Source of the DNA: a virus
Length of the DNA stretch: 64,000 bases
Virus record (IMG/VR): IMGVR_UViG_3300044646_001937
Span: 62,001 to 126,000 of that record
Strand: one strand, 5' to 3'
The notes under the pieces were generated by a model that saw only the letters and a list, made by a program, of their open reading frames with translations, was not told the origin of the DNA and did not search any database. This document shows positions 39,825 through 63,232 of the stretch, one piece after another; positions within the stretch are counted from its first letter, which is position 1, and each line of letters opens with the position of its first letter. Made by a program: the position numbers and the translations under genes.

Positions 39825-40517
39825 ATGCCTAGTTCTAAACAAGAAAAAATAACTAAACTTAAGGAATATTTTAGGAACATGCGTTTGGACGCATCTGTGA
39901 TGGGAAGGACTCTAGGAAGCTCATCTTCATATGTTTCGCCTCAAATAATGCTAGATACCACCAAGAAGCTGCTGGATGTGTTTGGTAGAAAGGTTGAACC
40001 TGATGATCGTGATAACGTCATCTTTTCCAAGTTTATGGGGCCTGAAGATCATATTAGAGAACATATTGAGCATGATGCAGGTAAGATTCAATTTAAAGCA
40101 AAGTCTAAGCTAAGACAAAAAAGAAACCTGTCATGGTTGCATGCAGGCTTCTTTTCTCCTCAGGTAAAATCTGTTTTTGTAGGTAACTCATTAAGTCAAA
40201 ATATTGAGGGTGTAAATCCGATGGAGCAGTATATGCTTGCACATAAAGTTACCAAAATGGGTGAGGGCGGTATCGGTTCTACTGAGGCTATTCCAGAATC
40301 TTCTAGAGAGGTAAATGAGTCTCAGTTTGGTTTACTTGACCCTATTCAAACAGTAGAGGCAACGACCATCGGGGTAGTAAATTTTTTCGTACATAATACC
40401 AGAAAAGGTACTGATGGAAAACTTTACAGACAGGTAATTGATAATGCTACTGGCAAGCCTGTATGGATTGATCATCATGAGTTTCTTTCTTCGGTTATAG
40501 ATATTCCTGAGCATTAG
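39825..40517 (+). CDS. RNA polymerase beta subunit, middle third (split)
   Basis: 230 residues corresponding to the beta region that holds fork loop 2 and the rifampicin pocket. The first 90 residues (KLKEYFRNMRLD..., LDTTKKLLDVFGRKVEPDDRDN) match the beta sequence between the lobe and the fork (compare GRYKLN..., DDIDHLGNRR). Then SQNIEGVNPMEQ (124-135), MGEGGI (145-150), SREVNESQFGLLDPIQTVEATTIGVVNFF match the highly conserved SQF-x-NPL, LGPGGL and [25 protein letters not shown] blocks. E178 aligns with the universal Glu of TPEGPNIG. It therefore continues directly from the N-third (47692-48348) and precedes the C-part (56825). Rif-pocket residues differ (see findings). Confidence 0.85.
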   Translation: MPSSKQEKITKLKEYFRNMRLDASVMGRTLGSSSSYVSPQIMLDTTKKLLDVFGRKVEPDDRDNVIFSKFMGPEDHIREHIEHDAGKIQFKAKSKLRQKRNLSWLHAGFFSPQVKSVFVGNSLSQNIEGVNPMEQYMLAHKVTKMGEGGIGSTEAIPESSREVNESQFGLLDPIQTVEATTIGVVNFFVHNTRKGTDGKLYRQVIDNATGKPVWIDHHEFLSSVIDIPEH

Positions 40518-41023
40518 TCTTTTGTTACTGGTCCCCACTTGCCTACAGGACATTTTTCTGTGGCTAGGTGCAGCTTTGCTGAAGTGCATCCGCATTGCTT
40601 GCATTTACCCATACCCATGTTTCCATCTTTATCCCAGAATGGGCAGCTATCGCAAATACTTTTTCGAAGCTCGTAAACTTCTTTAGTTGCTATAGGCATT
40701 CCGTTAGACACCCAATTTTTCATAGACCCTGCAAAGTTTTTAATTGGGCGCAGCACTGAATTGTCCACCTCAGTATCAGGAGTATCAGGTGAAGCTTCTT
40801 CTACTACTTGCAGCGTATTGCCCGCAGCTTTCTCACTATCTTTTTGCTTGTATTTAGCTACAATCATGTCTGCTTTTTTTCTAGATACAATGAAGACGTC
40901 ATCAAGCCAAACACCTTCAGCTTGTATCTCTTCTGCAAAGTCTGGTGCATGCAATTTATGCCTCTCCATAAGTTCTCTAGGGACATGCACGAAAGATTGC
41001 GCTATTTTTTGTTCAGGATGCAT
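40514..41023 (-). CDS. DUF6171-like zinc-ribbon protein
   Basis: 169 residues; the last 4 bases overlap the RNA polymerase fragment gene convergently. A C-terminal zinc-ribbon pattern CDSC...CKQCGC...CPVGKW resembles DUF6171-type small zinc proteins of phages. The N-terminal ~95 residues are charged helical with an SPDTPDTEVDN acidic linker. Adaptor or tail-assembly role is possible; not shown. Confidence 0.6.
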   Translation of the reverse strand: MHPEQKIAQSFVHVPRELMERHKLHAPDFAEEIQAEGVWLDDVFIVSRKKADMIVAKYKQKDSEKAAGNTLQVVEEASPDTPDTEVDNSVLRPIKNFAGSMKNWVSNGMPIATKEVYELRKSICDSCPFWDKDGNMGMGKCKQCGCTSAKLHLATEKCPVGKWGPVTKD

Positions 41024-41027
41024 ATGA

Positions 41028-42827: not shown

Positions 42828-42830
42828 AGT

Positions 42831-45395
42831 CTAGGCAATATTTTTGGGTACACCAGCAAAAGGATTATCATATCCGGTGGCATTGTTCCAGGGAGGAGGA
42901 GCCTCGGTGGATGCTCCTGAAGTTCCTTTATTTCCTGTAAAGCTGGTGGCTCCCACTGAGCCGTAAGCACGAAACTCCTTTTTATCTTTATCATAAAAGC
43001 CAAGCTTACCATCCTTCATTGTAAATGTTGCGCTAGCTCCTGAAGAGCCTTCATACCAATTAGTTTTTGTGGGTTCAGGAAATGCTAGAGTATAGAATAT
43101 TCTTTTTTTACCCTGACCATCACACATCATGATTGGATACCACTTAGGTTCGGATCCGGCAGGCACGATAGGCATATCCCACAATTTTCCGTCAGCTCTA
43201 GCTATCTGCATGTTTTTAAGGCCTGTTATTGTGCCTTTACACATATCAATCATCATGCCGTTTTCTGTACAACATGGATTTTGTGCAGGATATATGTTGT
43301 TTACAAATAGATCACGCAGCTCGATAGCAAGTCTTTTTCTTCTATTAGGTCTTACAAGCGCACCGGTGGCTCCCCCTGTATGTGCGACCCATTTTCTTTG
43401 CGCAGCACTCCAAACCTGGCCATGAGGCGAAACAGGTTTATCGTCTACGCATCCAAAATTACACCCACCATTACCGCTGCTTATTGTCCCGCCAGCACCA
43501 CCTCCACCACCTCCACCACCACCTCCGCCACCACCTCCGCCACCACCTCCGCCACCACCTCCGCCACCACCTCCGCCACCACCTCCGCCACCACCTCCGC
43601 CACCACCTCCGCCACCTCCAGAATCAGTTCCTCCGTTACCTGCGCCGTCACTTCCGCTAGTTCCAGGTAAACATCCTCCAGTTATTGCATTGCCGCCATA
43701 AATATCTCCAGCGCCATCTTCATTGTCGTCAAAATCCATGAAAATATCGACATGCGGAGTGGCCATTAAATATACAGATTTACCACAACCGCGTGGAGTT
43801 CCTGGAGCATTTTCGGCTACTGCAGAAACTTTAAAACAGCCACGACCAACGCTGCCGTCAGCTCCATATATGGTGATTGTACTTGCCTGTTTAGGTTGAT
43901 AAGGAAAATCTAAGTAAATTTCAGAGCATAAATCCGTATAGTAATTGTTACGGATAAGACTTCCACATGCAGGATATTCGTAATTAGTTGTATCACTTAC
44001 CTGCTGAATTGTAGGTGGTGGAGAATATTTGAGTCCTTGAACTCTCTGCCTACCTACCACCGCTCCTGCAGAGTTTACAAAGCTAATATTTAACTCTCTC
44101 AGTCCATCAAGAGTTACACCTGGTACAGCACCATGAATACCGTATACATTACCATTAAGTACTGCATCATTGTATTTAGCCACCGCCACAGGGTCATTCT
44201 GAAAATCAACAGGCAATGTAAGTGAGACTAGTTGTTTAACTTGGTACCAATTAGTCTGATATTCTATCGGATATGTGGGACATGCCTGGATTTCCATATC
44301 TCCTCTTATCTCTACACCACATACAGGATTTTCGTCAGTAGTAGGTGCAAGTATGGAATATTTTGGCGTATGCTCTTTTACTGCGCGACCATAGATTGAG
44401 CTTTTATCAGAGTACCGTAATTCTTTACAACCTGGATTAGGTATATTGAACTCGATGTCTCCATCAAGTTCCAAACTGCAATCAGGAGCACCATTTCCTT
44501 TAGCAAGCGTTATAGGTTTATTTATTTTAACATATTTAGAGTCGCCAGTGATGCTTACCTCTCCATCAATAGCAACATCCGAACATGCCTCAATTTCTGC
44601 TGAATAGCTAAAATCAAATCCACAAGAATTTTTATCATTAACGTTTAACGTAGACTTTTGTTTTTTAACAACTTTTCCTGTAAGATTGATTGCGTTGGTA
44701 GCTTGAAATTCTTCACATACATCTGCGTTAAAAAAACCAGTCATTGTCAATTGACATGGATTTTGATTGATTGCACTCAACTCAAGATTAGAACCTTTGA
44801 ATGCATCTGAAAACTGTATGTTATTATTGATTGTGTAATAGGGACAACCGTCATACTGAATATCTCCTACCAGGGCGACTCCGCAATCTTCAACAGTAAC
44901 TAAATTTAAGCTACCGGATAATGACTCTCCAAAGTTAACTGCAGATTCTGTGATTATCCTATCGCAGGCTTCAATATCAAATTTACCTGTAACTCTAAGA
45001 CTGCAATCATTAGGCGCATCGTCTGTTAATGCCTCATCATCTGACGAGCCTGGCTTTACTGGCCCGCTAGCCTCAATAACTAAAAAACTGTTCTTTGCTG
45101 CCAGATGTAAAAACTGAATGTCGGCGCTAGCTCCAAACTTTTCGCACGCAGGAAAGGGTTTTACTGGAGGCGGGTAATAGGTAGGCGGAATACCTAGCGT
45201 GTCAGGAAATTCATATGTACAAGAAGGCTCTAGATCAATTAGCGGAGTTTCAGGTAATGTTAATGTAAAAGTAATTCCAGGAGGTAGAGCACAATCGCTT
45301 GCTTGTGATGTTGCAGAGCGAGGAACATATTCCGCAAAGTACTTTGGATCATCTTTGCCTAGGTTAATTGAATCTGGATCTATTTCTAAAGACAT
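42831..45395 (-). CDS. Cys-repeat fibre protein with poly-glycine linker
   Basis: 854 residues. The first ~400 residues contain about six repeats of ~45 residues with the core [DNPS]-C-x-hydrophobic-x-x-x-G-x-[IF]-x-x-x-x-C, e.g. DCSLRVTGKFDIEAC and VCGVEIRGDMEIQAC, suggesting disulfide-stabilised beta modules. A ~130-residue domain with GDMEIQACPTYPIEYQTNWYQ and a CGSLIRNNYYTDLCSEIYLDF region follows. Residues ~590-640 are an uninterrupted poly-glycine tract encoded by a 12-base minisatellite (43525-43617). A globular C-terminal domain (GQVWSAAQRKWV, LRDLFVNNIYPAQNPCC) and a short collagen run close it. Start overlaps the previous stop (TAATG). Confidence 0.7.
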   Translation of the reverse strand: MSLEIDPDSINLGKDDPKYFAEYVPRSATSQASDCALPPGITFTLTLPETPLIDLEPSCTYEFPDTLGIPPTYYPPPVKPFPACEKFGASADIQFLHLAAKNSFLVIEASGPVKPGSSDDEALTDDAPNDCSLRVTGKFDIEACDRIITESAVNFGESLSGSLNLVTVEDCGVALVGDIQYDGCPYYTINNNIQFSDAFKGSNLELSAINQNPCQLTMTGFFNADVCEEFQATNAINLTGKVVKKQKSTLNVNDKNSCGFDFSYSAEIEACSDVAIDGEVSITGDSKYVKINKPITLAKGNGAPDCSLELDGDIEFNIPNPGCKELRYSDKSSIYGRAVKEHTPKYSILAPTTDENPVCGVEIRGDMEIQACPTYPIEYQTNWYQVKQLVSLTLPVDFQNDPVAVAKYNDAVLNGNVYGIHGAVPGVTLDGLRELNISFVNSAGAVVGRQRVQGLKYSPPPTIQQVSDTTNYEYPACGSLIRNNYYTDLCSEIYLDFPYQPKQASTITIYGADGSVGRGCFKVSAVAENAPGTPRGCGKSVYLMATPHVDIFMDFDDNEDGAGDIYGGNAITGGCLPGTSGSDGAGNGGTDSGGGGGGGGGGGGGGGGGGGGGGGGGGGGGGGGGGGGGGGGGAGGTISSGNGGCNFGCVDDKPVSPHGQVWSAAQRKWVAHTGGATGALVRPNRRKRLAIELRDLFVNNIYPAQNPCCTENGMMIDMCKGTITGLKNMQIARADGKLWDMPIVPAGSEPKWYPIMMCDGQGKKRIFYTLAFPEPTKTNWYEGSSGASATFTMKDGKLGFYDKDKKEFRAYGSVGATSFTGNKGTSGASTEAPPPWNNATGYDNPFAGVPKNIA
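43525..43617 (-). repeat. 12-base minisatellite encoding poly-glycine
   Basis: Seven exact tandem copies of the 12-base unit CCGCCACCACCT (plus strand) from 43525 to 43608 and part of an eighth; on the coding strand each encodes Gly-Gly-Gly-Gly. Less regular glycine codons extend the tract on both sides to about 48 Gly. Confidence 0.95.
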
Positions 45396-45730
45396 TAGAG
45401 TAATCTATTGAAGATGGTATAGAAAAGCAATGTTAAAGGACTTATAATCATTGCTTCTACTGAAAGGCTTGAACAAGAAGCCATAAAGCCAAGCCAAAAA
45501 CTTACGCAAACAGGACAGATTAAAAGTCTGACAATAAAACTTTCTGAGTAGTATTCATTCAGAAAGTCTGTGTATGTGCCGCTGTATCCTTCTTTGTGTA
45601 CATTATTATAATCAACAACATGAAAGAATCTATCTAATCTAAACAAGGTCATGTATTCTACAAACGCATTTGTTCTAAGCCAAATGAGTAAGAGATAACC
45701 TAGAAAGAAGGATACAGCTGCAATGCGCAT
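45395..45730 (-). CDS. Small membrane protein with CPVC motif
   Basis: 111 residues. N-terminal hydrophobic helix (about 3-20), a polar central part with YNNVHKEGYSGTYTDF, and a second hydrophobic region (about 68-108) that contains ICPVCVSFWLGF, a motif common to uncharacterised phage membrane proteins. Function unknown. Stop overlaps the fibre-gene start (TAATG), so they are translationally coupled. Confidence 0.6.
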   Translation of the reverse strand: MRIAAVSFFLGYLLLIWLRTNAFVEYMTLFRLDRFFHVVDYNNVHKEGYSGTYTDFLNEYYSESFIVRLLICPVCVSFWLGFMASCSSLSVEAMIISPLTLLFYTIFNRLL

Positions 45731-45731
45731 A

Positions 45732-46025
45732 CTATCCGGCTTTTTCCAATTCAGTGATACGCTTTTCCAGCTCTAGAAGTAGATTGCGCTGGGCTACTGT
45801 AGCAATACGCATGCTTTGAAGCCTATTCAACTGATCTGTAAGCTTACGGATATTTTCATCCTGCTCAGCAAGATTGGTATCTGCCTGCCTAAGACCATCC
45901 GCCACTAGCAATAGTGACACATGTTTTTGATCTACGTCTGTTTCAGTTACGATTGGTAACTCTACTCGCTGTGGGGTTTCTGTTTCTGTACTCATTGTGG
46001 TTTCTGTTGTTTGTTGTGGTTCCAT
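45732..46025 (-). CDS. Small coiled-coil protein
   Basis: 97 residues. Thr/Glu-rich disordered start, then a long heptad-rich helix (LLLVADGLRQADTNLAEQDENIRKLTDQL...) to the end. The ATG overlaps the previous stop (TAATG at 46025). No family recognised; may oligomerise. Confidence 0.5.
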   Translation of the reverse strand: MEPQQTTETTMSTETETPQRVELPIVTETDVDQKHVSLLLVADGLRQADTNLAEQDENIRKLTDQLNRLQSMRIATVAQRNLLLELEKRITELEKAG

Positions 46026-46192
46026 TACTCTAACGCATTGTTGTCGGTTAATAATTCTTTGATCTCTGCCTGGATGCGCTTTACTTCTTCGTTGTGGGCT
46101 TTAACCACATCTCGTTTGTTTCTTTTAGCGACTTCCAGATCAATTACGAGGTTGTAAATTTTCTGTTCCTTAGTTGTTTCTTGTTCAGGCAT
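46025..46192 (-). CDS. Small charged helical protein, 55 residues
   Basis: ATG at 46192, stop overlapping the next gene's ATG by one base. Almost entirely a charged helix (Lys/Glu-rich; KEQKIYNLVIDLEVAKRNK). Coupling to the coiled-coil gene supports it; the two may form a coiled-coil pair. Function unknown. Confidence 0.45.
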   Translation of the reverse strand: MPEQETTKEQKIYNLVIDLEVAKRNKRDVVKAHNEEVKRIQAEIKELLTDNNALE

Positions 46193-46208
46193 AATGACTT
46201 ATTGTTTT

Positions 46209-46223
46209 GAGTAGTTGCTACTC
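46209..46223 (-). other. Hairpin in the leader of the 46192 gene
   Basis: GAGTAG, 3-base loop, CTACTC: a perfect hairpin 17-31 bases upstream of the ATG at 46192, in the minus-strand leader. Confidence 0.35.
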
Positions 46224-46269
46224 TTAATAACAATACGACATACTAAAAAAGGCTGCAAGGGATTTTAGC

Positions 46270-46300
46270 AAAAAAAAAGACGCAGCTTTTGGCTGCGCCT
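46270..46300 (-). terminator. Minus-strand terminator after 46328 gene
   Basis: On the minus strand an imperfect stem with CGCAGC/GCTGCG core ends in nine T. It terminates the gene at 46328-46828. Confidence 0.8.
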
Positions 46301-46327
46301 CTTTTTATTCTAACTAGATATTCAGGA

Positions 46328-46828: not shown

Positions 46829-46883
46829 ATATATTTTCTATTTAGTTGTTTTTGTTTTAACAACAGAAAGCCATGACGCAACA

Positions 46884-47691: not shown

Positions 47692-48348
47692 CTAGTCTGC
47701 TCCTACAAGAATACCATACAGCTTATCTATCTCATCACCGTTATAGAGCATTCTGTTAGCATTGTATATTTTCTCTCCCCACGCGGCTTTCATTGTCCCA
47801 TCTGATATTCCTAGATCTTTTAAAACTCCGTAAAGTTTTACCTGCGAGTTCTTGATCATGATGATAAAGATCTGTTTGTCTGGTAGAAACATAATTCTAG
47901 CAGACTGCCCAGTTCTGGCCTCTGGATTGATGTGCGACTCTGGAATACCGTCTTGCCTAATCCTAGAATAGATACCTGGCAGCAATCTCTGCTGATTTAC
48001 ATTCTCATATTCTGAGCCGTTGTATATCACAGTATTGTGATTAGTTACATAAGGTACATGCGCAATAGTCGTACTCTTTGTTTCTACAACTTTACCTGAC
48101 GGTTTGTGTATTAGCTCTACAGTACCCTTTAGAGGGACAGTAAGATCTTTTTTCTCTAGTACAGCTTTCTTTTGTTCTGATGTGGTAATCTTATGCTCTC
48201 CAATACTTAAGTTCTTTACATTAAGTTTGAAGTCTTGCGTTTCAATTGCATTTAGTTTTTTACCAAAAGCATCTACAGCTGTATTGAACAGCATCTTTCG
48301 CAAATTAAACGGGTCATATAAATTGCGTGTGTCTTTTGGTGGCTGCAT
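47692..48348 (-). CDS. RNA polymerase beta subunit, N-terminal third (split)
   Basis: 218 residues matching the start of bacterial beta: an N-terminal helical segment, VPLKGTVELIHKPSGKVVET (compare the conserved VTLRNKETGEVKE), VPYVTNHNTVIYNGSEYENVNQQRLLPGIYSRI (compare [31 protein letters not shown]), then SARIMFLPDKQIFIIMIKNSQVKLYGVLKDLGIS (compare [32 protein letters not shown]). It ends with GEKIYNANRM where the lobe continues in the 39825 gene. Genes on both sides in the same operon are a glycosyltransferase and glycine-zipper virion proteins, hinting that the polymerase may be packaged. Confidence 0.8.
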   Translation of the reverse strand: MQPPKDTRNLYDPFNLRKMLFNTAVDAFGKKLNAIETQDFKLNVKNLSIGEHKITTSEQKKAVLEKKDLTVPLKGTVELIHKPSGKVVETKSTTIAHVPYVTNHNTVIYNGSEYENVNQQRLLPGIYSRIRQDGIPESHINPEARTGQSARIMFLPDKQIFIIMIKNSQVKLYGVLKDLGISDGTMKAAWGEKIYNANRMLYNGDEIDKLYGILVGAD

Positions 48349-52564: not shown

Positions 52565-55045
52565 CTATTTAGCTGAAAGTACTGGGTTGGCTTTGTTGTG
52601 TGCAGCAGTCAAAGGATTACCAGCGTTGGCGCCTACACCGTAAGAATCTTTCCAGCTGTTCATAAGCTTAGGAAGAAAATGCTGTCCGGCTACTGCTCCA
52701 GCCATAGGAAGAAGTATAGATGAAATACCAGGACCATCATCGTCGTCATCGCTAAGGCCTCTGCTAATTGCAGAACCTAGGAGTGCTCCTCCTCCTGTAC
52801 CCAGCATAGAGTTAGACATGAATGGAACAATCCTATGTCTGTCGTTATTGAGCATATCATCAGACTCTTTGAGCATTCCTTCAATAAAAGCTTCGTTAGC
52901 TCCTTCTTTAACCAACTGCTCTCTGAAGCCTTCCCATGCTTTCAGATATGCTGCTATCTTTTCTGACTCTTCAAGCTCTTTTGCTTTTTTTGTTCTGCTC
53001 TCAAGAATTTTAGTCTCTGCTTGTTTATATAATTCGACCAAAGATTCGCTAAGCATTCCTCTTGCAAAAGCATCATCGACCCCTAGCTCTTCTGCCATTT
53101 TCTTAAAGCCACTCACGCTAAATTCAAGAATTGCGTCAAACTCTGCTGTTTTAGGAATTGCTGTTCCTCTGGATGCTTTTTCCTTTAGCCATGCATCTAC
53201 TGCTGCAGGAGATCCTCCTGCACTAATCATCTTGGCTCTTTCTCTTTCTTCTCCTGGCATTCTGCTGATAGATGCTTGAGCTTGAGCTGGTGTAATTGCT
53301 CCACTCCTAACTCCCTGGTTTAATACCTGAGCTCCCCTCTCATAGTGCGATGGTGTACGGGCTTTTTGTTGCGTACTGTCTTGTGGCTGTGAGTTTTCCT
53401 GGATGATTGTCTCGCTGGCAGCCTGTGTGGGAGGGTTAGTTTCTGTGGAAGCCTGGGGGTCAGCTGCGGCTGATGGTGATGTTTGCGCTGCAGGTGCGGC
53501 TGGTTGCTGCGCTTCTGGTTGTGCATTAATAACTGCACCTCTTGATGGCATGCCTGGTGATTTGGTGCCAATGGCACCGGCCCTAGAAGGCATCCTGCTT
53601 CCCCTGGATTGCGGTAGGGGCACATTTGAAATAATAGGCTGTCTACCATTATTTTGATACAGCTCATCTAGCTGCTGTGCATTGAGGGTGTGTGGTTGGG
53701 GCTGTTCTTCTGAGGACTGAGTGGCCTGTTGTGTTTGTGAGGGTTGTTGTGTTTGTGCGGGCTGCGTTCCAGGTTTTGCCTGAGCTGGCATGGCATTTAC
53801 CACACCCTGCGCGCCGGCTGCTACTCCTTGATTTGAGTCTGGCTGATTAAATCCTTTGTAAATATCTCTGACTGCATTAGCTCCTGTAAGCCCAGTTGCC
53901 AAGGGACTGGTAACCGGAGCAATTATTGGAAATACGCCACCTGCTCCGCTACTCAATCCGGCTAAGGTATCAATTCCTGCTCCAAGGTAATCATTGTCTT
54001 TGAATCTGTTGTATGCCGAGCCAAGGCTAAGACCTGACCCTACAAAAGGAATAGCTCTGGGGGCACTTTGAGCTAGAATTTTAGCTACAGCAGGCATTGC
54101 GGCTTGTCCTGTGGAAACTGCACCTTTTCCATAATTACCGTCAGAAAACTCATTCAATGCATTTAAACCTGCGGCTGCGCTACCCAAACCTGTAAGCACT
54201 TTTCCTGCAGTGCCGACACCCTTAGCTAGGTTGCTAGCGCCAGGAGCGGGTGATCCTCCTGCAGGTGGAACTCCGCCGCCGCCAGTGGGGGGAGTTGGTG
54301 GCGCTCCTCCGCCTCCTTGACCTGCCCTAGCGGCATTGAATTTGTTGACCACATTGTTGGCCATGTTCTTTGCTCCCTGCCAAGCATTGGTAGCCTTTTG
54401 CTTTACTCCACCCACAAAGTTGCCAGCTGCTGAAGTTGGTTGAGGTGCTGCTTGTGGGTTTGTTGGGTTAGCCTGTGGAAGACCAGCCCTGGCAGCAGGT
54501 GCTGCTTGTGCAGGAGACGACTCTATGTCGATGACCTGGTTGTTTAGCTTTGGACTATTAGTCTTTGCGCCTGCTGTTCCTTTTGAGGGTGAAATAACCT
54601 CGTCTGGAGTGAGCACCTTTGTGGCTTGAGCTTCTGTGGTGGTGTTGTGAAGCCTTGGACTGTTTGCTTGTGATGCTGAGGAAGAGCTTGCTGGGGGGAC
54701 TACGTTAGCATTCCTGGGTACAATAGCGTTGGGCTTTACCTTTGGAGCTCTTTTTGTGTTCTTTGGGGCACTCTTTCCTGCTCCTGGGGTTGTTGCGTTC
54801 TGAGGTGCTGGAGGAGTTTTTGGCTTCAGCTTGACCTCTTGAGGATACGACTGAGAGTTGTAGCCCTTCTGGAACTCTTGAGCTTTCTGTCTGATTCCTT
54901 GCATGAACTTTCCGAACTGATCCTGAGGAAGACCCATTGCCATCTTTGTTGCAGCCTCTTTGCTCATCCCCAGCCCTACTGCTTCGTCCACGAAGCCGTC
55001 GATCATGCTTTGAAAGATTTCTTTTTCCTGTAGGTTGCTGCTCAT
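52565..55045 (-). CDS. Large low-complexity virion protein with repeated helix motif
   Basis: 826 residues. N-terminal helix (EIFQSMIDGFVDEAVGLGM) and two similar ~25-residue copies near residues 640-740 (ILEFSVSGFKKMAEELGVDD and YLKAWEGFREQLVKEGANEA) share a GF-x5-G-x-x-x-A pattern. Between them are Pro/Ala/Gln-rich disorder, a Gly-rich region (about 190-300) and a membrane-like Gly/Ala/Ile zone (about 300-400). Likely internal virion or scaffold protein. Its start overlaps the downstream reading frame of the Rep-like gene by 341 bases, so start choice is uncertain; no Shine-Dalgarno is visible. Confidence 0.6.
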   Translation of the reverse strand: MSSNLQEKEIFQSMIDGFVDEAVGLGMSKEAATKMAMGLPQDQFGKFMQGIRQKAQEFQKGYNSQSYPQEVKLKPKTPPAPQNATTPGAGKSAPKNTKRAPKVKPNAIVPRNANVVPPASSSSASQANSPRLHNTTTEAQATKVLTPDEVISPSKGTAGAKTNSPKLNNQVIDIESSPAQAAPAARAGLPQANPTNPQAAPQPTSAAGNFVGGVKQKATNAWQGAKNMANNVVNKFNAARAGQGGGGAPPTPPTGGGGVPPAGGSPAPGASNLAKGVGTAGKVLTGLGSAAAGLNALNEFSDGNYGKGAVSTGQAAMPAVAKILAQSAPRAIPFVGSGLSLGSAYNRFKDNDYLGAGIDTLAGLSSGAGGVFPIIAPVTSPLATGLTGANAVRDIYKGFNQPDSNQGVAAGAQGVVNAMPAQAKPGTQPAQTQQPSQTQQATQSSEEQPQPHTLNAQQLDELYQNNGRQPIISNVPLPQSRGSRMPSRAGAIGTKSPGMPSRGAVINAQPEAQQPAAPAAQTSPSAAADPQASTETNPPTQAASETIIQENSQPQDSTQQKARTPSHYERGAQVLNQGVRSGAITPAQAQASISRMPGEERERAKMISAGGSPAAVDAWLKEKASRGTAIPKTAEFDAILEFSVSGFKKMAEELGVDDAFARGMLSESLVELYKQAETKILESRTKKAKELEESEKIAAYLKAWEGFREQLVKEGANEAFIEGMLKESDDMLNNDRHRIVPFMSNSMLGTGGGALLGSAISRGLSDDDDDGPGISSILLPMAGAVAGQHFLPKLMNSWKDSYGVGANAGNPLTAAHNKANPVLSAK

Positions 55046-56327
55046 ATGGTAAGATTCTAGAATCAGATTTAGATTTTTCTTGTTTTATTGTAGTAGATTC
55101 GCTCTCGTTTTGCAACAAACTATCCTCTTTCTTCTCTCTAGCCTTTTTTTTAGGTATCCTAGCACAGCCTACTCTGTTGACCTTTCCTAGAGCTGCTGTG
55201 TCCTTTTTGAACAGCCAGACCAGTTCTCTGTAGCATTCTTTGGTGTTGTGGTTGAGTTCTGGAATGTTGTCTTCTCTGATTTCTCTCATATAGGTCTCAG
55301 CAAGACTGTAGCAGTTGTGAAGATAGTTGATCATCTTGCTGATGTCTTTGTAGCTGGAAACTAGCTTGGGTACTTCCTTGTGGTCTACATTAGAAGTAAG
55401 GATGCTCATGTGCTTTCCAGGATTGTGCTTGTTGAAGTAGTCAGCACAGAGCTTTGCACGCTCAAAGAGACTTTCTCTGTTCTTTTCTTTTTCTAGAAAG
55501 AAGACCAGATGAGTATGAGGACGATATTTCTTGCATAGAATAGAGTCTACACTGATTTCGTTGCTGTAGATGTAGCTAGAGACGCACTTCTTCTTGTTGA
55601 GCATTCTAGAGAAGAAGCTAGCGTTAGACTTGAAGAAGAGCTGATAGTCTTTTTTCATAAGCTCAGCTGAAGAGTACTTTTTGTCTTCTTGTAGAATCAC
55701 AGCCTGAAAGCAGACCATAGTAGAGAAGAGAGATTCTACATCATAGTGGTTGTTGAACTTTCTGTAGGCTCTCAGGCAGGTTTTAGGATCTAGAGTACGA
55801 TTGTCTAGGCAATGCTTGCTATAGGATAGATCTACAGGATTTTTAAGATTAGTAAGAATGCTGTCCTTACCATTGCTTACTATGTTGGTAGTATCGCAAC
55901 CTAGGCTTAATAGCAGATGAGTTTCTAGATTTTTTCTTTTAAGACCAAACCTATTGCTGTTTCCAGTAGTATCACTCAGTACCAGCTTTCTAAAGACAAC
56001 CTTTTCATGATTAGAGAGCAAGTGCCAGTTCTCTACATAGTCATTAGGGTTAGTATAGTTGATAGAGTGTTTAGAGAGAACAGGCCTAGAGCTAGTCACA
56101 TATGAGGATAGTGAGGAGAAGTCATTACCAGAGCCTATGAAGCGGTCTATTGCTTCTCTAGAGGGAGGAGGTATGTTTCCGTGCTTATCCTCACAGTAGT
56201 AGTAGCTGTCTTTGTTCTCTTCACTAGCACTCATAGAGCAAGAGTGCCTTGTTTCAAAGCAATCCTCAGAGGGAGAGGATGATAAAGCTATGAATTCTTC
56301 GAAAGTAAGCCTTGAGGAGCGAGCCAT
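54705..56327 (-). CDS. Possible HUH Rep-like protein (long overlap)
   Basis: 540 residues. A strand SYIYSNEIS, a PHTHLVFF motif (H271-T-H273), and a later SKMINYLHNCYSLAETY helix resemble, in order, strand, HUH motif and Tyr-containing helix of rolling-circle Rep endonucleases, although the middle HUH residue is Thr rather than hydrophobic. The final ~114 residues overlap the start of the next gene in another frame and are basic and low-complexity (SSSGSVRKVHARN), so part may be non-functional or the two genes may be coupled in an unusual way. The family is unconfirmed; a Rep-type protein in a large phage would be unexpected. Confidence 0.35.
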   Translation of the reverse strand: MARSSRLTFEEFIALSSSPSEDCFETRHSCSMSASEENKDSYYYCEDKHGNIPPPSREAIDRFIGSGNDFSSLSSYVTSSRPVLSKHSINYTNPNDYVENWHLLSNHEKVVFRKLVLSDTTGNSNRFGLKRKNLETHLLLSLGCDTTNIVSNGKDSILTNLKNPVDLSYSKHCLDNRTLDPKTCLRAYRKFNNHYDVESLFSTMVCFQAVILQEDKKYSSAELMKKDYQLFFKSNASFFSRMLNKKKCVSSYIYSNEISVDSILCKKYRPHTHLVFFLEKEKNRESLFERAKLCADYFNKHNPGKHMSILTSNVDHKEVPKLVSSYKDISKMINYLHNCYSLAETYMREIREDNIPELNHNTKECYRELVWLFKKDTAALGKVNRVGCARIPKKKAREKKEDSLLQNESESTTIKQEKSKSDSRILPYEQQPTGKRNLSKHDRRLRGRSSRAGDEQRGCNKDGNGSSSGSVRKVHARNQTESSRVPEGLQLSVVSSRGQAEAKNSSSTSERNNPRSRKECPKEHKKSSKGKAQRYCTQEC

Positions 56328-56822: not shown

Positions 56823-56824
56823 AT

Positions 56825-59800
56825 ATGCCGAATAAGAGCCACAAGTATGTTTTGGACAATGGGAAGTTGAAGAAAGTTCTTGGAACCACCAAAGCCAAGT
56901 ACAGCATTCCAGACCCATCATCCTTTTTCAGCCCTGTTACAAATCTGATTCCAGGTATCAGTTCTGTGTCTGGTGCTCGCGTATTGATTGGAGACAAGTC
57001 ATCCCTCCAGGCAATGACCCTGGTAAACAGAGAGGCTCCGCTGATACAGTCGGCCCCTAAGAACGTAAAAGGCGTAACCACCGAGAGCTTCAGCAAGCAG
57101 TTCGGTAAGCTTGTAACCGTAAACGCTAAAGCTGACGGAACAGTTACCAAGATAGACGAAGACCATATTGTGATCAAAGACAAGCTGAGTAAGCTTCATG
57201 AACACGACCTCTATAACAACTATATTGTAGGAAGAGAAAGCTACCTACACCACACTCCTGTGGTTAAGGTTGGAGACAAGGTCAAAGCTGGAGACCTCCT
57301 AGCCACATCGAACTATTCTGATGGTAAGGGTATGCTTGCTCTTGGTATGAACCTCAAGACAGCTATCATGCCCTACAGATCTCTTAACTTTGAAGATGCT
57401 CTGGTTATTTCCGAGACAGCAGCAAAGAAACTAGAGGGAGAGCAGCTGATTCCTGTACGCATGGAAATTGCTAGAGGGATGATAGTAGACAAAGACCAGT
57501 ACGTCTCGATGTTCCCTAATAAATTCTATAACGAGCAGTTGTCTAATATTGCTAGCAATGGTGTGGTCAAAAAAGGAACAGTATTGAACCATGGAGATCC
57601 AGTGATTCTAGCCTGCCAGCCTAAGTCGCTTAAATCTCTAGATATTCAGTTGGGTAATTTGTCTAAAGCTGTAAAGAATGCGTTCTCAGACGTAGGAACC
57701 ATCTGGGAGTATGAATATCCTGGTGAAGTCACAGACGTATCGGTCACATCAAAGCTAATAGCTGTTACGGTTAAGACAAAAAGACCTATGAGCTATGGAG
57801 ACAAACTAAACATGCCGTTCGGAGCAAAAGGCGTTGTACACATTGCTCCTGATACACAGATGCCCCAGGGAGAAGACGGCAAACCTGTAGATGTATTGCT
57901 CAACACTATGAGTATTACCTCTCGCGTTGCTCCAGGATTGGTAAATACTATCGGGCTAGGTAAGCTGGCAGAAAAGAAAGGAAAGGCCCTGAACATGTCG
58001 GGCTTTACCGAAGGTTCCGCAGTCCAAAAGGTGGCCGATGTTTTGGCTAAGAACAATATTAAAGATACCGAGAAACTGTATGATCCTATTTCAGGCAAAC
58101 ATATTGATGTGATGACAGGTCCGCTATACTTCAACAGATTACATCATATTGCCGAAGATAAAATATCTACAAGATCGGCAGCAACCACCTACGACATTAA
58201 CATGCAGCCCTCTAAAGCAGGATCGCATGAAAAAGCTAAACGTCTAGGTAATCTGGCTACCACCGTAGCACTATCAAACGACGCTAAAGCCGTACTTAGA
58301 GATGTTGCCACAGTCAGAGCCACAAAGAATGACGAGTTTTGGACAGCCTTGAAACTAGGGCATGCTCCACCTCCACCAAAAACCCCATTCATATTTGAGA
58401 AGTTCCTAAGCCACCTCAAAGGCTCTGGAGTGAATGTGGTTCAAGACGGTTCTAAGTTTCATATCATGCCTCAAACAGATAAAGATGTTGTAGCACTTTC
58501 ACAAGGAGCAATTACAGAACCTCTAGGCTACAAACTTAAAAAAGATGCACTCATGCATGAAGAAGGAGGACTTTTTGATCCTACACTCACAGGCATTCAT
58601 GGCAACAACTACAATCATGTGGAGTTAAATCATAAAATCCCAAACCCGATGGCTGAAGAGCATCTCAGAAAATTACTGAAGATGACTAAGGCAGCATATG
58701 ATGACGCTATCGCATCAGGAGAATTAGAGAATAAGCTTAAGGCTATGAATCTGGACGATAAGATCACAGAGCTAAAGCAATTGGTAGCGTCCAAGAGAAA
58801 ATCAGGCAGAGATGACGCTATTAAAGCTCTAAGCTTCCTGACAATGCTTAAAGAAAAAAACCTAAAGCCTGACGACATGATGCTCTCAAAGCTGGCGGTA
58901 ATTCCTGCCCAGTATAGACCTGTAATGGTTCAGGGAAATCAGACTCTGACCGCAGACGTGAACGAGCTCTATAAGGACGTGATGCTGGTTAACAAGTCAT
59001 ATGGAGAAGCCAAAGATTCTCCAGACATAGACAAGGAACATTTAACTGAAGCAAAAAAGCAAATCTATGCAGGAGTCAAAGCTGTCTATGGTTTGGGTGA
59101 ACCTATTAAGCAAAAAAGTGTAGAAAAGAACTACAAAGGCTTATTAGCATCGGCTTTAGGTTTGCAAGGCGGATCAGCCAAAGAATCTATGTTTCAGGCA
59201 AAGGTGGTAAACAAGCCTATTGATCTTGTAGGCAGAGCAGTGTTGCTTCCTGACTCTAAATTAGACTTGAATCAGGCTAGTATTCCTCAGCAGGTAGCAT
59301 GGAGTATCTATTCTCCTTTTGTTATTCGCAGATTGGTAAGACAAGGCATACCAGCCACCAAAGCCAGAGAATATTTAGACAACAAGCATCCTCTGGCACT
59401 GTCAGCACTACAGGACGAGATGACAGATCGCCCAGGCATTGTTACCAGAGATCCGCAACTTTCAAAGTACAACTTTCAGGGTATGTACCTAAAAATGAAT
59501 CCTGATCCAAAGGACTTTTCGATTAAATTAAATCCTTTGGTGTTTAAGGGGTATGGCGGAGACAGTGATGGTGACCAGCTTAACGTACAGCTACCAGCTA
59601 GTGAAGACGCAAAAGAGGAAGTTAAAGAGAAATTGCTTCCTGAAAAGAATCTTATCTATCACAGAACATTTAGTCCAATATTCACACCATCCAACGAAGC
59701 TGCTACCGGTTTATTCGCTGCAAGTTTTGAAGATAATAAGAATACTCCTAAGAAATACAGCTCTCCCCAGGACGTGGTTAAAGATTTTTTAGCAGGAAAG

Positions 59801-59830
59801 CTTGATGTTGGTGACAGAGTAGAGTTATAA
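56825..59830 (+). CDS. RNA polymerase beta-C / beta'-N fusion
   Basis: 1001 residues. Residues ~1-490 match the beta C-half: SGARVLIGDKSSLQAM, REAPLI, LNFEDALVISE (E190/D191), GDKLNMPFGAKG with catalytic lysines K327 and K335, DGKPVDVLLN, and HHIAEDKISTRSAATTYD. After a proline-rich linker (~520-530), residues ~600-1001 match beta' N: LAVIPAQYRPVMVQ, LVGRAVLLPDSKL, R875 in TRDPQLSK, and the magnesium-binding DSDGD (D913/D915/D917). The beta' zinc ribbon is absent (one Cys in the protein). This fuses two normally separate subunits and carries the active-centre lysines and aspartates in one chain. The rest is provided by the genes at 39825, 47692 and 61382. Confidence 0.9.
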   Translation: MPNKSHKYVLDNGKLKKVLGTTKAKYSIPDPSSFFSPVTNLIPGISSVSGARVLIGDKSSLQAMTLVNREAPLIQSAPKNVKGVTTESFSKQFGKLVTVNAKADGTVTKIDEDHIVIKDKLSKLHEHDLYNNYIVGRESYLHHTPVVKVGDKVKAGDLLATSNYSDGKGMLALGMNLKTAIMPYRSLNFEDALVISETAAKKLEGEQLIPVRMEIARGMIVDKDQYVSMFPNKFYNEQLSNIASNGVVKKGTVLNHGDPVILACQPKSLKSLDIQLGNLSKAVKNAFSDVGTIWEYEYPGEVTDVSVTSKLIAVTVKTKRPMSYGDKLNMPFGAKGVVHIAPDTQMPQGEDGKPVDVLLNTMSITSRVAPGLVNTIGLGKLAEKKGKALNMSGFTEGSAVQKVADVLAKNNIKDTEKLYDPISGKHIDVMTGPLYFNRLHHIAEDKISTRSAATTYDINMQPSKAGSHEKAKRLGNLATTVALSNDAKAVLRDVATVRATKNDEFWTALKLGHAPPPPKTPFIFEKFLSHLKGSGVNVVQDGSKFHIMPQTDKDVVALSQGAITEPLGYKLKKDALMHEEGGLFDPTLTGIHGNNYNHVELNHKIPNPMAEEHLRKLLKMTKAAYDDAIASGELENKLKAMNLDDKITELKQLVASKRKSGRDDAIKALSFLTMLKEKNLKPDDMMLSKLAVIPAQYRPVMVQGNQTLTADVNELYKDVMLVNKSYGEAKDSPDIDKEHLTEAKKQIYAGVKAVYGLGEPIKQKSVEKNYKGLLASALGLQGGSAKESMFQAKVVNKPIDLVGRAVLLPDSKLDLNQASIPQQVAWSIYSPFVIRRLVRQGIPATKAREYLDNKHPLALSALQDEMTDRPGIVTRDPQLSKYNFQGMYLKMNPDPKDFSIKLNPLVFKGYGGDSDGDQLNVQLPASEDAKEEVKEKLLPEKNLIYHRTFSPIFTPSNEAATGLFAASFEDNKNTPKKYSSPQDVVKDFLAGKLDVGDRVEL

Positions 59831-59873
59831 ATGTACAGGCACAATAGTCTTTATTTTTATAACTTTTTAGTTT

Positions 59874-60074
59874 ATGCTTGATGAAAATATATGGATGCAA
59901 CTCAGCGAAGATGAAAAATTTGCAGAGTTACAGACGTATTTAAATACTATAATTAAAATAGATGAAGGCCTGCATGAGCTAAGTCATACCCCAGAGCAAG
60001 GAAAGCTTGCCTGTATGAAAAAAGAACTGCAGTCAAAAGTTTTTAAAATAATAGAAATAGAAAACGCAATATGA
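59874..60074 (+). CDS. Small acidic helical protein
   Basis: 66 residues, acidic-amphipathic helix (LSEDEKFAELQTYLNTIIKID) and a Lys-rich end. The stop overlaps the next start (ATGA pattern at 60071). Unknown function; may serve the polymerase cluster. Confidence 0.5.
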   Translation: MLDENIWMQLSEDEKFAELQTYLNTIIKIDEGLHELSHTPEQGKLACMKKELQSKVFKIIEIENAI

Positions 60075-60961
60075 AAGTATCTGAACTAATCAACTCCTAC
60101 AGCAGTATAGTTAAAGTGGCTGAAGCAAATAAACTCACGCAGAAGAGCGTGAAGCAGGCCTTTGTCGCCAATCCAAATGTGCCCCCTCCACAACCCGGTC
60201 AACCAGTACAGCAGGCACTACCTCCAGGACAGCAAGATCCACAGCAGCAGGCTGCAGCCCAACAGCAAGCTCAAGCGGCACCAGAACAACAAGCTGCACC
60301 ACAACAGGCAGCTCAGCCTGGCCCGCAGGTAACGCAATTAATGCAGCTTGTACAGCAGCTACCTCCAGAAATGCAGCAGCAGATTGGCGGCGCACTGCAG
60401 CAGCTACAGCAAATGCCTCCCCCTCAGCAGGAGCAGACAGCAGGTCAGCTAATACAGCAAATCTCTGCAAGCATGCAGCAACAGCAGGCACCTCAGCAGG
60501 CACCCGCACAACCACCACAAGCACCTCAACAGCCACAGGCGGCTCCTCAGCCAATGGAAGCACAGGCAGGACTTGAGGAAGATCTTTATGCTGCATCACA
60601 AGGCATGCAGCAACCTCCTCAGGATCCATCACAACAGATGCCACCCCAACAACAAGACCCAGCAGCAGAAGATGCGGCGCAGGCAGAGCAATCAGCCATT
60701 GAAGCCAAAAACGAGTTAGATAATGTTAAAGTAACCCTATCAGTTAGAGAACTACTTGATCTGGTAGGTAAGGGTTCCGCCACAGCATCATTATTGAAGG
60801 TCAAGCAGCTGGCCGACACACATCAGCAAAAGATGGAACAGACAAAGCAGAAAGCCGAAGCTGATCAGCAGAAGGCTCAAGCACAGCAACAGCAGCAACA
60901 ACAAGCAGACCAGCAAGGCATGATGGGCGGAGGCATCTACCCAACACCGATGGGTACGTAA
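60071..60961 (+). CDS. Gln/Pro/Ala-rich virion-type protein
   Basis: 296 residues. N-terminal helix (KVSELINSYSSIVKVAEANKLTQ) then a very low-complexity Gln/Pro/Ala-rich body (about 30-210) and a charged helical end (NVKVTLSVRELLDLVGKGSATASLLKVKQLA). Similar in composition to 448-1308 and 52565-55045. Structural or scaffolding role inferred. Lies between the two main polymerase genes. Confidence 0.55.
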   Translation: MKVSELINSYSSIVKVAEANKLTQKSVKQAFVANPNVPPPQPGQPVQQALPPGQQDPQQQAAAQQQAQAAPEQQAAPQQAAQPGPQVTQLMQLVQQLPPEMQQQIGGALQQLQQMPPPQQEQTAGQLIQQISASMQQQQAPQQAPAQPPQAPQQPQAAPQPMEAQAGLEEDLYAASQGMQQPPQDPSQQMPPQQQDPAAEDAAQAEQSAIEAKNELDNVKVTLSVRELLDLVGKGSATASLLKVKQLADTHQQKMEQTKQKAEADQQKAQAQQQQQQQADQQGMMGGGIYPTPMGT

Positions 60962-60971
60962 TTTTCAAGAT

Positions 60972-61382
60972 ATGCCAGACTACTCTAAACTAGCGGCCTT
61001 CTTAAATTCTTTTGATGTCCTTGACCCAGGATATGACGCAGTCTCTTTTATTAAAGAGAAGATTGCCCAGGATCTACAGGATGCAAACACAATTAACAAT
61101 GGCGATGAAGAAGATCTTCAAGATAACGACATCACCATGTCTACACCAGAACAGCAGGATAACGAGAACGTTGAAGGCAAGGAGATGGAAGGGGCCTTTA
61201 AAGAACTTGAGGCGTTAAATCAGATAGATGAGGAGAAGAAGGAAGTCATTAAGCCCAAAGAGCAGTCCACCTATTCTGCAATGCAAACAGATTTTCCGTC
61301 TGTTTCGGTGCTTGGCAATCATCCCAATATCAACAAGCAAGCTTCGTTATTTACATTGTTGCAGAAAAAACTTAAAGCATAA
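60972..61382 (+). CDS. Acidic virion-type protein
   Basis: 136 residues. Hydrophobic-acidic N-terminus (KLAAFLNSFDVLDPGYDAVSFIKEKIAQD) then a Glu/Asp/Gln-rich disordered region and a hydrophobic-basic end (LFTLLQKKLKA). Its stop overlaps the ATG of the beta'-C gene (TAATG), so it is co-translated with that polymerase piece. Confidence 0.5.
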   Translation: MPDYSKLAAFLNSFDVLDPGYDAVSFIKEKIAQDLQDANTINNGDEEDLQDNDITMSTPEQQDNENVEGKEMEGAFKELEALNQIDEEKKEVIKPKEQSTYSAMQTDFPSVSVLGNHPNINKQASLFTLLQKKLKA

Positions 61383-63232
61383 TGGCTGTAACTACCACAG
61401 GACAGGTATTGTTGAAGTTCTTCCTACCTCAACAATTTCATAATCTAGTTCAGGATGTCATTTTAGATAAAAAGGGCATCTCTAAGCTTTTTGCAGAATT
61501 AGCGGAAAAGGCTCCTGAAGAATATAGTAAAATTGTATCAGATCTTACTAGATTAGGTTTCGAGATTGCTACAAGACAAGGTACGTCTATTACTTTAAAA
61601 GATCTAATCTCTCCCATCAATAAAGATAAAGAGTGGGATGAGTTTGAAAAATTTAAAGAAGAAACAGAAAAGTCAAACGACTCAAAAAGCATTAAAGACA
61701 ATAAGATCTTTAATAAATACAACGACATGATGTCTAGTATTGAAAAAGATCTATTGAATAAGGGTCTTGCTGATAATAAGTCATTGGCTAAGATTATCAT
61801 GGCAGGATCCCGAGGTTCTCCAGCACAATACAGAGGAACAATTGCAACACAGGGAATCGTAGTGGATGCAGAGGGTAAGCCTAAAATGGATCTACCTATT
61901 AAAAGTTCTTATGCTGAAGGCTTATCTTTACCAGAATATTTAGCTACTTCGTTTGGTACTAGGTCTGGGGAAGTGTTAAAAAAGATTAGTGTGGCGCAGG
62001 GCGGGTATGGCTCCAAGCAATTTGCAAGAGCGCTAATGCCTCTACAGGTAGTAGAGGCAGACTGCGAAACAATGAACGGTATCAGTGTTTCTGTAGACGA
62101 CAAAGAATCAGCAGGGTCCTATCTAGCCAAAGGAGTGTTAGACTATAATAGGAATAACGAAGTGACATTAAAAATGCTCAACGATCTTAGAAATAAGAAA
62201 GTTGAGAAGATTGTTATTCGTACACCCATGACATGTCAGTCTAACAAAAAACATCACTCAGGTGGTTTGTGTCAGATGTGTGTAGGTAAAAGAGAAAAGG
62301 GAATGGCAGCAATGGACAGCTATGTAGGTCTGGTGGCAGGTACGGCTGTAGCGGAACCATTAACAGAAAGCGCGATGAAGGCCAGACATTCAGGAGGCGC
62401 AGCCACGTCACTAGGAGGACAATCAGGCTTTAAGCTAATCAATCAGCTGGCCAACGTACCTAAGACATTTGTAGGCAGAGCCCCCCTAGCTCAAGAGGAC
62501 GGATTTGTTACTAAAGTAGAGAAAGCTGACGCTGGAGGTTACTTTATAACCGTGAATAATGAAGAGCATTATATTGGGATTGATCAGGAACCTAAAGTAC
62601 AGCAAGGAGACAGAGTAGAACAGGGACAGGTATTAAGTACAGGTCTTGTAGATCCTAGAGAGGTTGTAAAATATAGAGGAATTGGAGACGGGCGTAAGTA
62701 TTATATGGAGGCAATGAAGAAAGCATTCGACGACAGCAGTCTTCCTGTAAATCGCAGAAATTTTGAGCTGATTGCGAAAGCTGCTGTAGATCATGTCAAA
62801 ATCACAGACCCCGAAGGTATAGGTAATTATCTTCCAGATCAGGTGGTGTCATACTCAGCTATTGAGAAAGACTATAACCCCAGAAGTAACTCTAAGATGC
62901 TTAGGATAGATATGGCCTATGGTAAATATATGGAGAAACCTGAGCTTCACTACACCATTGGCACCAGAGTTACCTCCGCCGTAATCAGAGATCTCAAAGA
63001 ACATGAGATTGAATCTGTACTGGTTAACGATCAACCCCCCAACTTTGAACCAGTAATGGTACGTCTGGTGGACGTACCAGAGCATCATGAAGACTGGATG
63101 CATGTATTAAACAGCACCAACCTCGCAAAAAGGTTTGTAAATATGGTCAACAGAGGATCTACATCAGACACAAAAGGCCCTAGCCCTATACCTGGGTTAG
63201 CTATGGGTGTTGGGTTTGGACAGAAAGATTAA
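61382..63232 (+). CDS. RNA polymerase beta' C-terminal half (split)
   Basis: 616 residues. Bridge-helix region GSRGSPAQYRG, then YLATSFGTRSGEVLKKISVAQGGYGSKQFAR, the four-Cys zinc site (EADC, MTC, GLC, QMC), and the trigger-loop block GTAVAEPLTESAMKARHSGG with M332 and H336 at the positions of E. coli M932 and H936 (R933 is Lys). The C-terminal clamp-like NRRNFELIAKAAVDHVKITDPEGIGNYLPD matches the end of beta'. With the beta-C/beta'-N fusion it completes beta'. Starts by TAATG coupling with the previous gene. Confidence 0.9.
   Translation: MAVTTTGQVLLKFFLPQQFHNLVQDVILDKKGISKLFAELAEKAPEEYSKIVSDLTRLGFEIATRQGTSITLKDLISPINKDKEWDEFEKFKEETEKSNDSKSIKDNKIFNKYNDMMSSIEKDLLNKGLADNKSLAKIIMAGSRGSPAQYRGTIATQGIVVDAEGKPKMDLPIKSSYAEGLSLPEYLATSFGTRSGEVLKKISVAQGGYGSKQFARALMPLQVVEADCETMNGISVSVDDKESAGSYLAKGVLDYNRNNEVTLKMLNDLRNKKVEKIVIRTPMTCQSNKKHHSGGLCQMCVGKREKGMAAMDSYVGLVAGTAVAEPLTESAMKARHSGGAATSLGGQSGFKLINQLANVPKTFVGRAPLAQEDGFVTKVEKADAGGYFITVNNEEHYIGIDQEPKVQQGDRVEQGQVLSTGLVDPREVVKYRGIGDGRKYYMEAMKKAFDDSSLPVNRRNFELIAKAAVDHVKITDPEGIGNYLPDQVVSYSAIEKDYNPRSNSKMLRIDMAYGKYMEKPELHYTIGTRVTSAVIRDLKEHEIESVLVNDQPPNFEPVMVRLVDVPEHHEDWMHVLNSTNLAKRFVNMVNRGSTSDTKGPSPIPGLAMGVGFGQKD

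What the first reader, a model, noticed from the sequence alone, without database searches (positions are those of the whole stretch)
39825..63232. Phage RNA polymerase with beta in three pieces and a beta-C/beta'-N fusion
Seen: the conserved blocks of bacterial beta and beta' are distributed in order over four genes: beta N-third (47692-48348, minus), beta middle (39825-40517, plus), beta C-part fused to beta' N-part (56825-59830, plus) and beta' C-half (61382-63232, plus). Junctions fall without obvious gaps or duplications. Knowledge: phiKZ- and AR9-type phages have each large subunit split in two, unfused as far as I recall. Here beta is split twice and the second break joins beta to beta', which may be a new arrangement. 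Catalytic residues appear intact.
Basis: partly seen in the sequence, partly recalled or inferred. Interest (0 to 1): 0.92.

Follow-up and report, generated by a model that had tools for sequence, protein, structure and literature searches.

The report
Phage RNA polymerase broken into four
This uncultured large phage makes a complete bacterial-type RNA polymerase from four separate proteins, and its relatives show that the enzyme's two big subunits were first welded into one giant protein and only later broken apart, which lets the fragmentation of an ancient enzyme be traced step by step.

Summary
Confirmed: the window encodes one complete bacterial-type RNA polymerase in four genes: beta-N (47692-48348, minus), beta-middle (39825-40517, plus), beta-C joined to beta'-N (56825-59830, plus) and beta'-C (61382-63232, plus). 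Sequence, profile and fold evidence support all four assignments. Catalytic residues are intact, all pieces are under purifying selection, and no second copy, alpha or omega was found.

The 'fusion' reading needs turning round. It is not unique to this phage: isolated Salmonella phage Arash and Vibrio phage D69 carry whole beta plus beta'-N in one protein, and at least 53 other viral contigs carry all of beta and beta' in one chain of about 2,060-2,200 aa. On rooted trees the fusion happened once, first. The breaks came later: one at the beta'-N/beta'-C boundary shared with Arash, then two inside beta in the window clade, where they are conserved in 13 other contigs. Sister lineages broke elsewhere, and carry group I introns and inteins in the same gene.

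Arash's homologues were detected at high counts in purified virions, so this is probably a virion-packaged early polymerase (inferred). I found no description of the single-chain clade or its serial fragmentation. New variant of a known kind.

The parts
47692..48348 (-). beta-N: protrusion and start of lobe of the beta subunit (218 aa)
   Evidence: Collinear with Arash Gp206 residues 36-222 (30% id, E 2e-20); profile matches B. subtilis beta 54-233 and E. coli beta 87-229; AF2 model to RNAP beta, best E 1.5e-11; present in 13 relatives
39825..40517 (+). beta-middle: rest of lobe and fork/rifampicin-pocket region (230 aa)
   Evidence: Pfam Rpb2_3 E 3.9e-6; matches E. coli beta 404-597, E 3.5e-8; collinear with Arash Gp206 232-469; 50-87% identical homologue in 13 relatives
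56825..58453 (+). beta-C part of the fusion protein (fus residues 1-543): flap, beta double-psi barrel with K1065/K1073 equivalents
   Evidence: Rpb2_6 E 1.7e-46 at 102-464; PDB beta chains; beta/beta' boundary placed at residue 543/544
58454..59830 (+). beta'-N part of the fusion protein (fus residues 544-1001): clamp helices, beta' double-psi barrel with DSDGD catalytic triad; N-terminal zinc ribbon absent
   Evidence: Rpb1_1 and Rpb1_2; PDB beta'/gamma chains; D460/D462/D464 kept, C70/C72/C85/C88 missing
61382..63232 (+). beta'-C: funnel, bridge helix, trigger loop, second zinc site, jaw and clamp end (616 aa)
   Evidence: Rpb1_5 E 5.6e-14; PDB beta' chains 1e-35; H936 and C814/C888/C895/C898 equivalents; Arash Gp216 homologue
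63310..64000 (+). start of a gene homologous to Arash structural protein Gp218, directly after beta'-C (runs beyond the window)
   Evidence: blastp 5e-10 to Arash Gp218; Gp218 was re-annotated as structural from virion mass spectrometry; places the RNAP genes next to a virion-protein gene as in Arash

Best explanation
The four genes encode one catalytic core of a bacterial-type multisubunit RNA polymerase that assembles from four chains: beta-N, beta-middle, beta-C/beta'-N and beta'-C. It descends from an ancestral phage enzyme in which beta and beta' were one continuous polypeptide. Three later gene breaks, at linkers between domains, gave the present pieces. The surviving covalent beta-C/beta'-N joint keeps the two catalytic double-psi barrels in one chain, which could make the missing alpha and omega assembly subunits dispensable. 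By homology with Arash, whose two RNAP proteins were detected at high counts in purified virions, the enzyme is probably packaged, ejected with the DNA and used for early transcription, perhaps with the phage's own sigma-like protein. Shown by sequence: identity, completeness, conservation, single copy found, order of fusion and breaks. Inferred: assembly, activity, packaging, timing, sigma partner.
For: Assignments and intact catalytic residues. The four-gene layout is conserved in 13 other viral contigs at 40-87% identity per piece, which rules out an assembly error. Pieces have pN 0.09-0.16 against near-saturated pS 0.70-0.83 in the close relatives L011 and L018, and pN 0.21-0.31 in L028. 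Single copy found: one place for PF00562, one frame for PF00623, one place for PF04565, no second tblastn copy. No alpha or omega family. Single-chain relatives: at least 53 contigs. Fused clade monophyletic and outside bacteria and other phage RNAPs. Parsimony: one fusion, one change each for the two beta breaks. Arash Gp206 and Gp216 had 3516 and 1210 spectra in purified particles, and sigma-like Gp10 had 467 (PMC10585845). Homologues of Arash Gp10, portal, capsid, terminase and several structural proteins in this genome. Single-chain genes sit downstream of a homologous portal gene in most contigs checked.
Against: No four-chain co-fold could be run; the fusion model is low confidence (pLDDT 67.6). 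No expression or virion data exist for this phage; packaging rests on a relative sharing ~30% identity, and the Arash authors themselves allow carry-over of abundant proteins. Sister relation of window clade and Arash clade is 95 in one tree and 0.53 in the larger one, so the beta'-N/beta'-C break could have happened twice. The 204-kb record may be incomplete. That the breaks lie on linkers is inferred from domain boundaries, not from a model of the complex.
Confidence: 0.83

Rival explanations
1. One reading: beta was broken twice as in phiKZ-type phages, then the separate beta-C became joined to beta'-N in this lineage.
For: Breaks J2 and J4 lie near phiKZ/AR9-type breaks.
Against: Arash, D69 and at least 53 single-chain contigs share the beta/beta' joint but not the beta breaks; AR9 and phiR1-37 branch with YerA41/Carin-5, outside the fused clade; YerA41 and Carin-5 keep beta in one gene.
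Confidence: 0.07
2. The split pieces are rejoined before use, by trans-splicing introns or split inteins, giving a single-chain enzyme after all.
For: Relatives carry a group I intron or inteins in this gene.
Against: No Rfam intron anywhere in the window; each piece is fully accounted for by RNAP homology with its own ATG and stop and no intein-like tail.
Confidence: 0.03
3. The RNAP is not packaged but is made after infection as a middle/late polymerase (non-virion type), only one phage-encoded RNAP being present.
For: J2 and J4 resemble non-virion RNAP breaks of phiKZ-type phages; Arash authors note that carry-over of abundant enzymes is possible.
Against: Arash Gp206 had the highest spectral count in virions; the genes lie beside portal and structural genes in the clade.
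Confidence: 0.25
4. A decaying or pseudogenised polymerase with no function.
For: Fragmented gene; the N of NADFDGD and the first zinc ribbon are missing.
Against: Purifying selection in all pieces, catalytic residues intact, layout kept across relatives of 40-87% identity; the zinc ribbon is also absent in the single-chain and Arash lineages aligned.
Confidence: 0.02

Closest known systems
Salmonella phage Arash Gp206 + Gp216 (OQ632216; PMC10585845)
   Same: Same beta-C/beta'-N joint, same beta' break, collinear over full length at 27-31% identity, shared portal, capsid, terminase and sigma-like Gp10
   Different: Beta is unbroken: beta plus beta'-N is one 1525-aa protein; described in the paper simply as 'subunit beta'
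Vibrio phages D69, D181, D148 (OZ195729, OZ196140, OZ196545)
   Same: Arash-type architecture
   Different: Beta unbroken; D181 has a group I intron with a homing endonuclease inside beta and D148 shows the same interruption; annotated as hypothetical proteins
Single-chain beta-beta' RNAPs of uncultured phages (L045, L043, L037 and others; found here)
   Same: Same clade, same domain order, same missing N-terminal zinc ribbon in those aligned
   Different: All of beta and beta' in one chain of about 2,060-2,200 aa, some with inteins up to 3,249 aa
phiKZ/AR9-type multisubunit RNAPs (PMC7598289)
   Same: Split beta and beta', no alpha or omega, beta' break after the catalytic barrel; beta break near J2
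   Different: Unfused, two RNAPs per phage, separate branch; no sigma homologue recognised there
mReC phages of Weinheimer and Aylward 2020 (PMC7481178)
   Same: Uncultured tailed phages with bacterial-like beta and beta' that branch outside cells
   Different: That study required NADxDGD and proteins of at least 800 aa, so the window clade (GGDSDGD, split) would have been missed; its main text mentions a beta-beta' fusion only for crAssphage
Natural beta-beta' fusions of Wolinella and Ca. Adlerbacteria (PMC11515920)
   Same: Beta and beta' in one chain
   Different: Cellular, not broken afterwards as far as described

Membership tests
Bacterial-type multisubunit (two-barrel) RNA polymerase | beta barrel with two conserved lysines and beta' barrel with DxDGD | tested here: met
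   K1065/K1073 and D460/D462/D464 equivalents in window and relatives; Pfam Rpb2_6, Rpb1_2
Bacterial-type multisubunit (two-barrel) RNA polymerase | bridge helix/trigger loop module and second zinc site in beta' | tested here: met
   H936 and C814/C888/C895/C898 equivalents; Rpb1_5
Bacterial-type multisubunit (two-barrel) RNA polymerase | alpha and omega subunits | tested here: not met
   PF01193 and PF01192 absent from the record while ringing in 13 and 14 control genomes; the record may be incomplete; absence is also the rule in phiKZ-type phage RNAPs, so this lowers 'is a cellular-type holo-core', not 'works like one'
phiKZ/AR9-type jumbo phage RNAP | beta and beta' split and not joined to each other | tested here: not met
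   beta-C and beta'-N are one open frame in the window and in relatives
phiKZ/AR9-type jumbo phage RNAP | branches with phiKZ-type enzymes | tested here: not met
   AR9 and phiR1-37 group with YerA41/Carin-5 (95), fused clade separate (100)
phiKZ/AR9-type jumbo phage RNAP | two paralogous RNAPs (virion and non-virion) | tested here: not met
   one place or frame per domain in the record; the record may be incomplete
Arash-like fused beta-beta' RNAP clade | beta joined to beta' in that order, no N-terminal zinc ribbon, monophyly | tested here: met
Virion-packaged RNAP | protein present in the particle and ejected | not testable with these tools
   only by homology to Arash Gp206/Gp216
YonO/crAss-like single-subunit RNAP | reduced single-chain enzyme too divergent for a sequence match to cellular subunits | tested here: not met
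   window pieces match bacterial beta and beta' by sequence nearly end to end

The most novel reading that the evidence does not exclude
A whole phage lineage carries full-size bacterial-type RNAP as a single beta-beta' chain, and homing elements (introns, inteins) drive its repeated, lineage-specific breakage into separate genes. Fragmented phage polymerases would then be recently broken enzymes, not relics of a primordial multi-piece polymerase as has been proposed for jumbo phages.
Probability: 0.35. Interest if true: 0.82.

Novelty: new variant of a known kind. Interest (0 to 1): 0.68.

Why it matters
Split phage RNA polymerases have been read both as broken cellular enzymes (intron-driven, Lavysh et al. 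as cited in PMC7598289) and as remnants of a pre-LUCA multi-piece polymerase (PMC7824862). This clade offers a polarised series (single chain, two pieces, three pieces, four pieces, with introns and inteins sitting in the same gene), so the question becomes testable in one lineage. It also gives a full-size RNAP in one gene without alpha or omega found in the record searched here, a candidate for engineering and for structural study of assembly, with an isolated relative (Arash) already in culture. Predicted rifampicin-pocket changes (H526 to L, D516 to E, S522 to E, R529 to K) give a simple functional test.

Tried and rejected
Pfam on beta-N alone: only weak Tim44/HlyD matches, rejected because the family profile and the fold search both give RNAP beta.

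L165 first looked like a missing three-piece intermediate for the window lineage; it is a group I intron with an I-HmuI-like endonuclease inside an Arash-type gene. Its site is about 40 residues after J2, so it is not the window's break.

Intein positions in single-chain relatives (L045 numbering ~395, ~800, ~955, ~1413, ~1825, ~1865) do not coincide with J1 (~218), J2 (~450) or J4 (~1496). The homing-element cause of the breaks is therefore plausible, not shown.

Rfam on the window: nothing. Bacterial genome collection scan with the fusion alignment: no relatives.

AF2 model of the fusion was too weak (pLDDT 67.6) to judge the beta/beta' linker, although the listed Foldseek hits are all RNAP beta. 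The absence of a T7-like RNAP could not be shown because the control search rang nowhere.

MAFFT placed J1 at E. coli beta ~373; the profile and sequence searches suggest anywhere between ~230 and ~403, a stretch short in the whole clade, so no exact E. coli coordinate is claimed.
Full report
WHAT IS THERE. The window is bases 62001-126000 of a 204,454-bp virus record. The four ORFs are at the stated coordinates and strands. Pfam, PDB sequence searches and a fold search assign them to successive parts of bacterial beta and beta'. The hardest case, beta-N, has no Pfam hit, but its 22-sequence profile matches RNAP beta chains (best E 9.1e-12) and its model (pLDDT 82.2) finds only RNAP beta among the top 50 PDB chains listed.

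COMPLETENESS AND FUNCTIONALITY. Aligned with E. coli, the window keeps beta K1065 and K1073, beta' D460/D462/D464, trigger-loop H936 and the second zinc site; the N-terminal zinc ribbon is absent in all fused-clade sequences aligned. The catalytic motif reads GGDSDGD instead of NADFDGD (sequence). All four genes show strong purifying selection. PF00562 and PF04565 match at one place each and PF00623 in one frame of the record; tblastn finds no second copy. Alpha and omega families are absent while ringing in control genomes. Two sigma-like proteins are present elsewhere in the record: 33629-34213 with Sigma70_r4_2 (E 2e-6) and 155747-156379 with Sigma70_r3 (E 5e-7), the latter homologous to the Arash virion protein Gp10 (record coordinates).

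THE LAYOUT IS REAL AND CONSERVED. Thirteen further contigs carry beta-N, beta-middle and the beta-C/beta'-N fusion, and beta'-C wherever the contig reaches it, with beta-N on the opposite strand to the fusion. Identity to the window ranges from 40% (beta-N of L032) to 87% (beta-middle of L035's contig). An assembly error cannot explain this.

THE FUSION IS OLDER THAN THE BREAKS. Salmonella phage Arash Gp206 (1525 aa) contains beta-N, beta-middle, beta-C and beta'-N in one chain, and Gp216 is beta'-C; the window pieces map to residues 36-222, 232-469 and 483-1517 of Gp206 and 5-599 of Gp216. Vibrio phage D69 is the same. A deeper scan gave 56 loci (53 distinct contigs) with all of beta and beta' in one ORF, mostly 2,060-2,200 aa. 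Ten contigs break instead inside beta'-N: 1125-1198 aa, then 378-419 aa (where not cut), then beta'-C where the contig reaches it. A maximum-likelihood tree rooted on bacteria gives a monophyletic fused clade (100), with window and Arash clades as sisters (95) and single-chain lineages outside them. A larger tree agrees except that the window-Arash pairing is weak (0.53). Fitch parsimony gives one fusion, one change for each of the two beta breaks, one for the beta'-N internal break, and two for the beta' break (one of them in YerA41). AR9 and phiR1-37 C-beta branch elsewhere.

WHERE THE BREAKS ARE. J1 (beta-N/beta-middle) lies in the lobe, in a stretch (E. coli ~230-403) that is short throughout the clade. 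From my own knowledge, part of this stretch is dispensable and tolerant of splitting in E. coli. J2 (beta-middle/fusion) lies about 18 residues before the start of C-beta in AR9 and phiR1-37. J4 (fusion/beta'-C) is at E. coli beta' ~550-569, close to the cyanobacterial gamma/beta' split, which the review describes as shared by both phiKZ-type RNAPs. The beta/beta' joint is at fusion residue 543/544.

MOBILE ELEMENTS IN THE SAME GENE. L165 and the sequenced Vibrio phage D181 have a group I intron (E 1e-28 and 1e-26) with a homing endonuclease inside beta, where D69 has none. Several single-chain genes carry inteins or homing-endonuclease insertions, most often at the catalytic DxDGD. None coincides with the window's breaks, so causation is only suggested. 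The intron-then-rearrangement idea for phiKZ-type phages is in the literature.

HOW IT PROBABLY WORKS. The four chains should assemble into one core enzyme. The covalent beta-C/beta'-N chain holds the two catalytic barrels together, which would compensate for missing alpha and omega (inference). In Arash, Gp206 has 3516 and Gp216 has 1210 spectra in purified particles, and Gp10 has 467 (PMC10585845). In most single-chain contigs checked the gene lies a few kilobases downstream of a homologous portal gene, and in the window beta'-C is followed by a homologue of structural protein Gp218. A virion RNAP ejected with the DNA for early transcription is the best reading; the Arash authors also allow carry-over.

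NOVELTY. PMC7481178 reports beta and beta' in uncultured Caudovirales but, in the passages read, mentions a beta-beta' fusion only for crAssphage. PMC7824862 argues that split jumbo-phage RNAPs are primordial. The Arash paper calls Gp206 'subunit beta'. Within the open library I found no report of full-size single-chain beta-beta' phage RNAPs or of their serial breakage. Subscription papers and supplements were not searchable. I therefore score a new variant of a known kind, interest 0.68.

Noticed in passing
L037, L052, L106, L107, L121, L125, L127, L130, L136, L151, L157, L158 (single-chain RNAP ORFs): Large insertions, in those scanned bearing intein or LAGLIDADG/homing-endonuclease domains, at about six positions of the single-chain RNAP, most often exactly at the catalytic DxDGD motif; L106 appears to carry three.
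   Followed up: partly
L165:9092-10004; L166:2955-3866: Group I intron with HNH endonuclease inside the beta gene of L165 and Vibrio phage D181 (D148 shows the same interruption); Vibrio phage D69 has the same gene uninterrupted, an occupied/empty pair in sequenced phages annotated only as hypothetical proteins.
   Followed up: yes
L046, L049, L146-L150, L153, L155, L160: A different break of the same polymerase, inside beta'-N (beta plus beta' start / beta' catalytic barrel / beta'-C), with from almost no gap up to 3 kb between the first two pieces.
   Followed up: partly
window 42831-45395 (minus): 854-aa protein with a long run of nothing but glycine; neighbouring genes have collagen-like GATGATG repeats.
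   Followed up: no
window 54705-56327 overlapping 52565-55045 (both minus): 540-aa ORF with a very weak Rep-like match (REP_ORF2-G2P, E 0.036) overlaps the next gene by about 340 bp in another frame; its C-terminal end may be an out-of-frame reading.
   Followed up: partly
window 37177-39027 (minus): B12-dependent (class II) ribonucleotide reductase-like protein, 616 aa.
   Followed up: no
window 60071-60961 (plus): Proline/glutamine-rich low-complexity protein lying between the beta-C/beta'-N and beta'-C genes; no family match.
   Followed up: no
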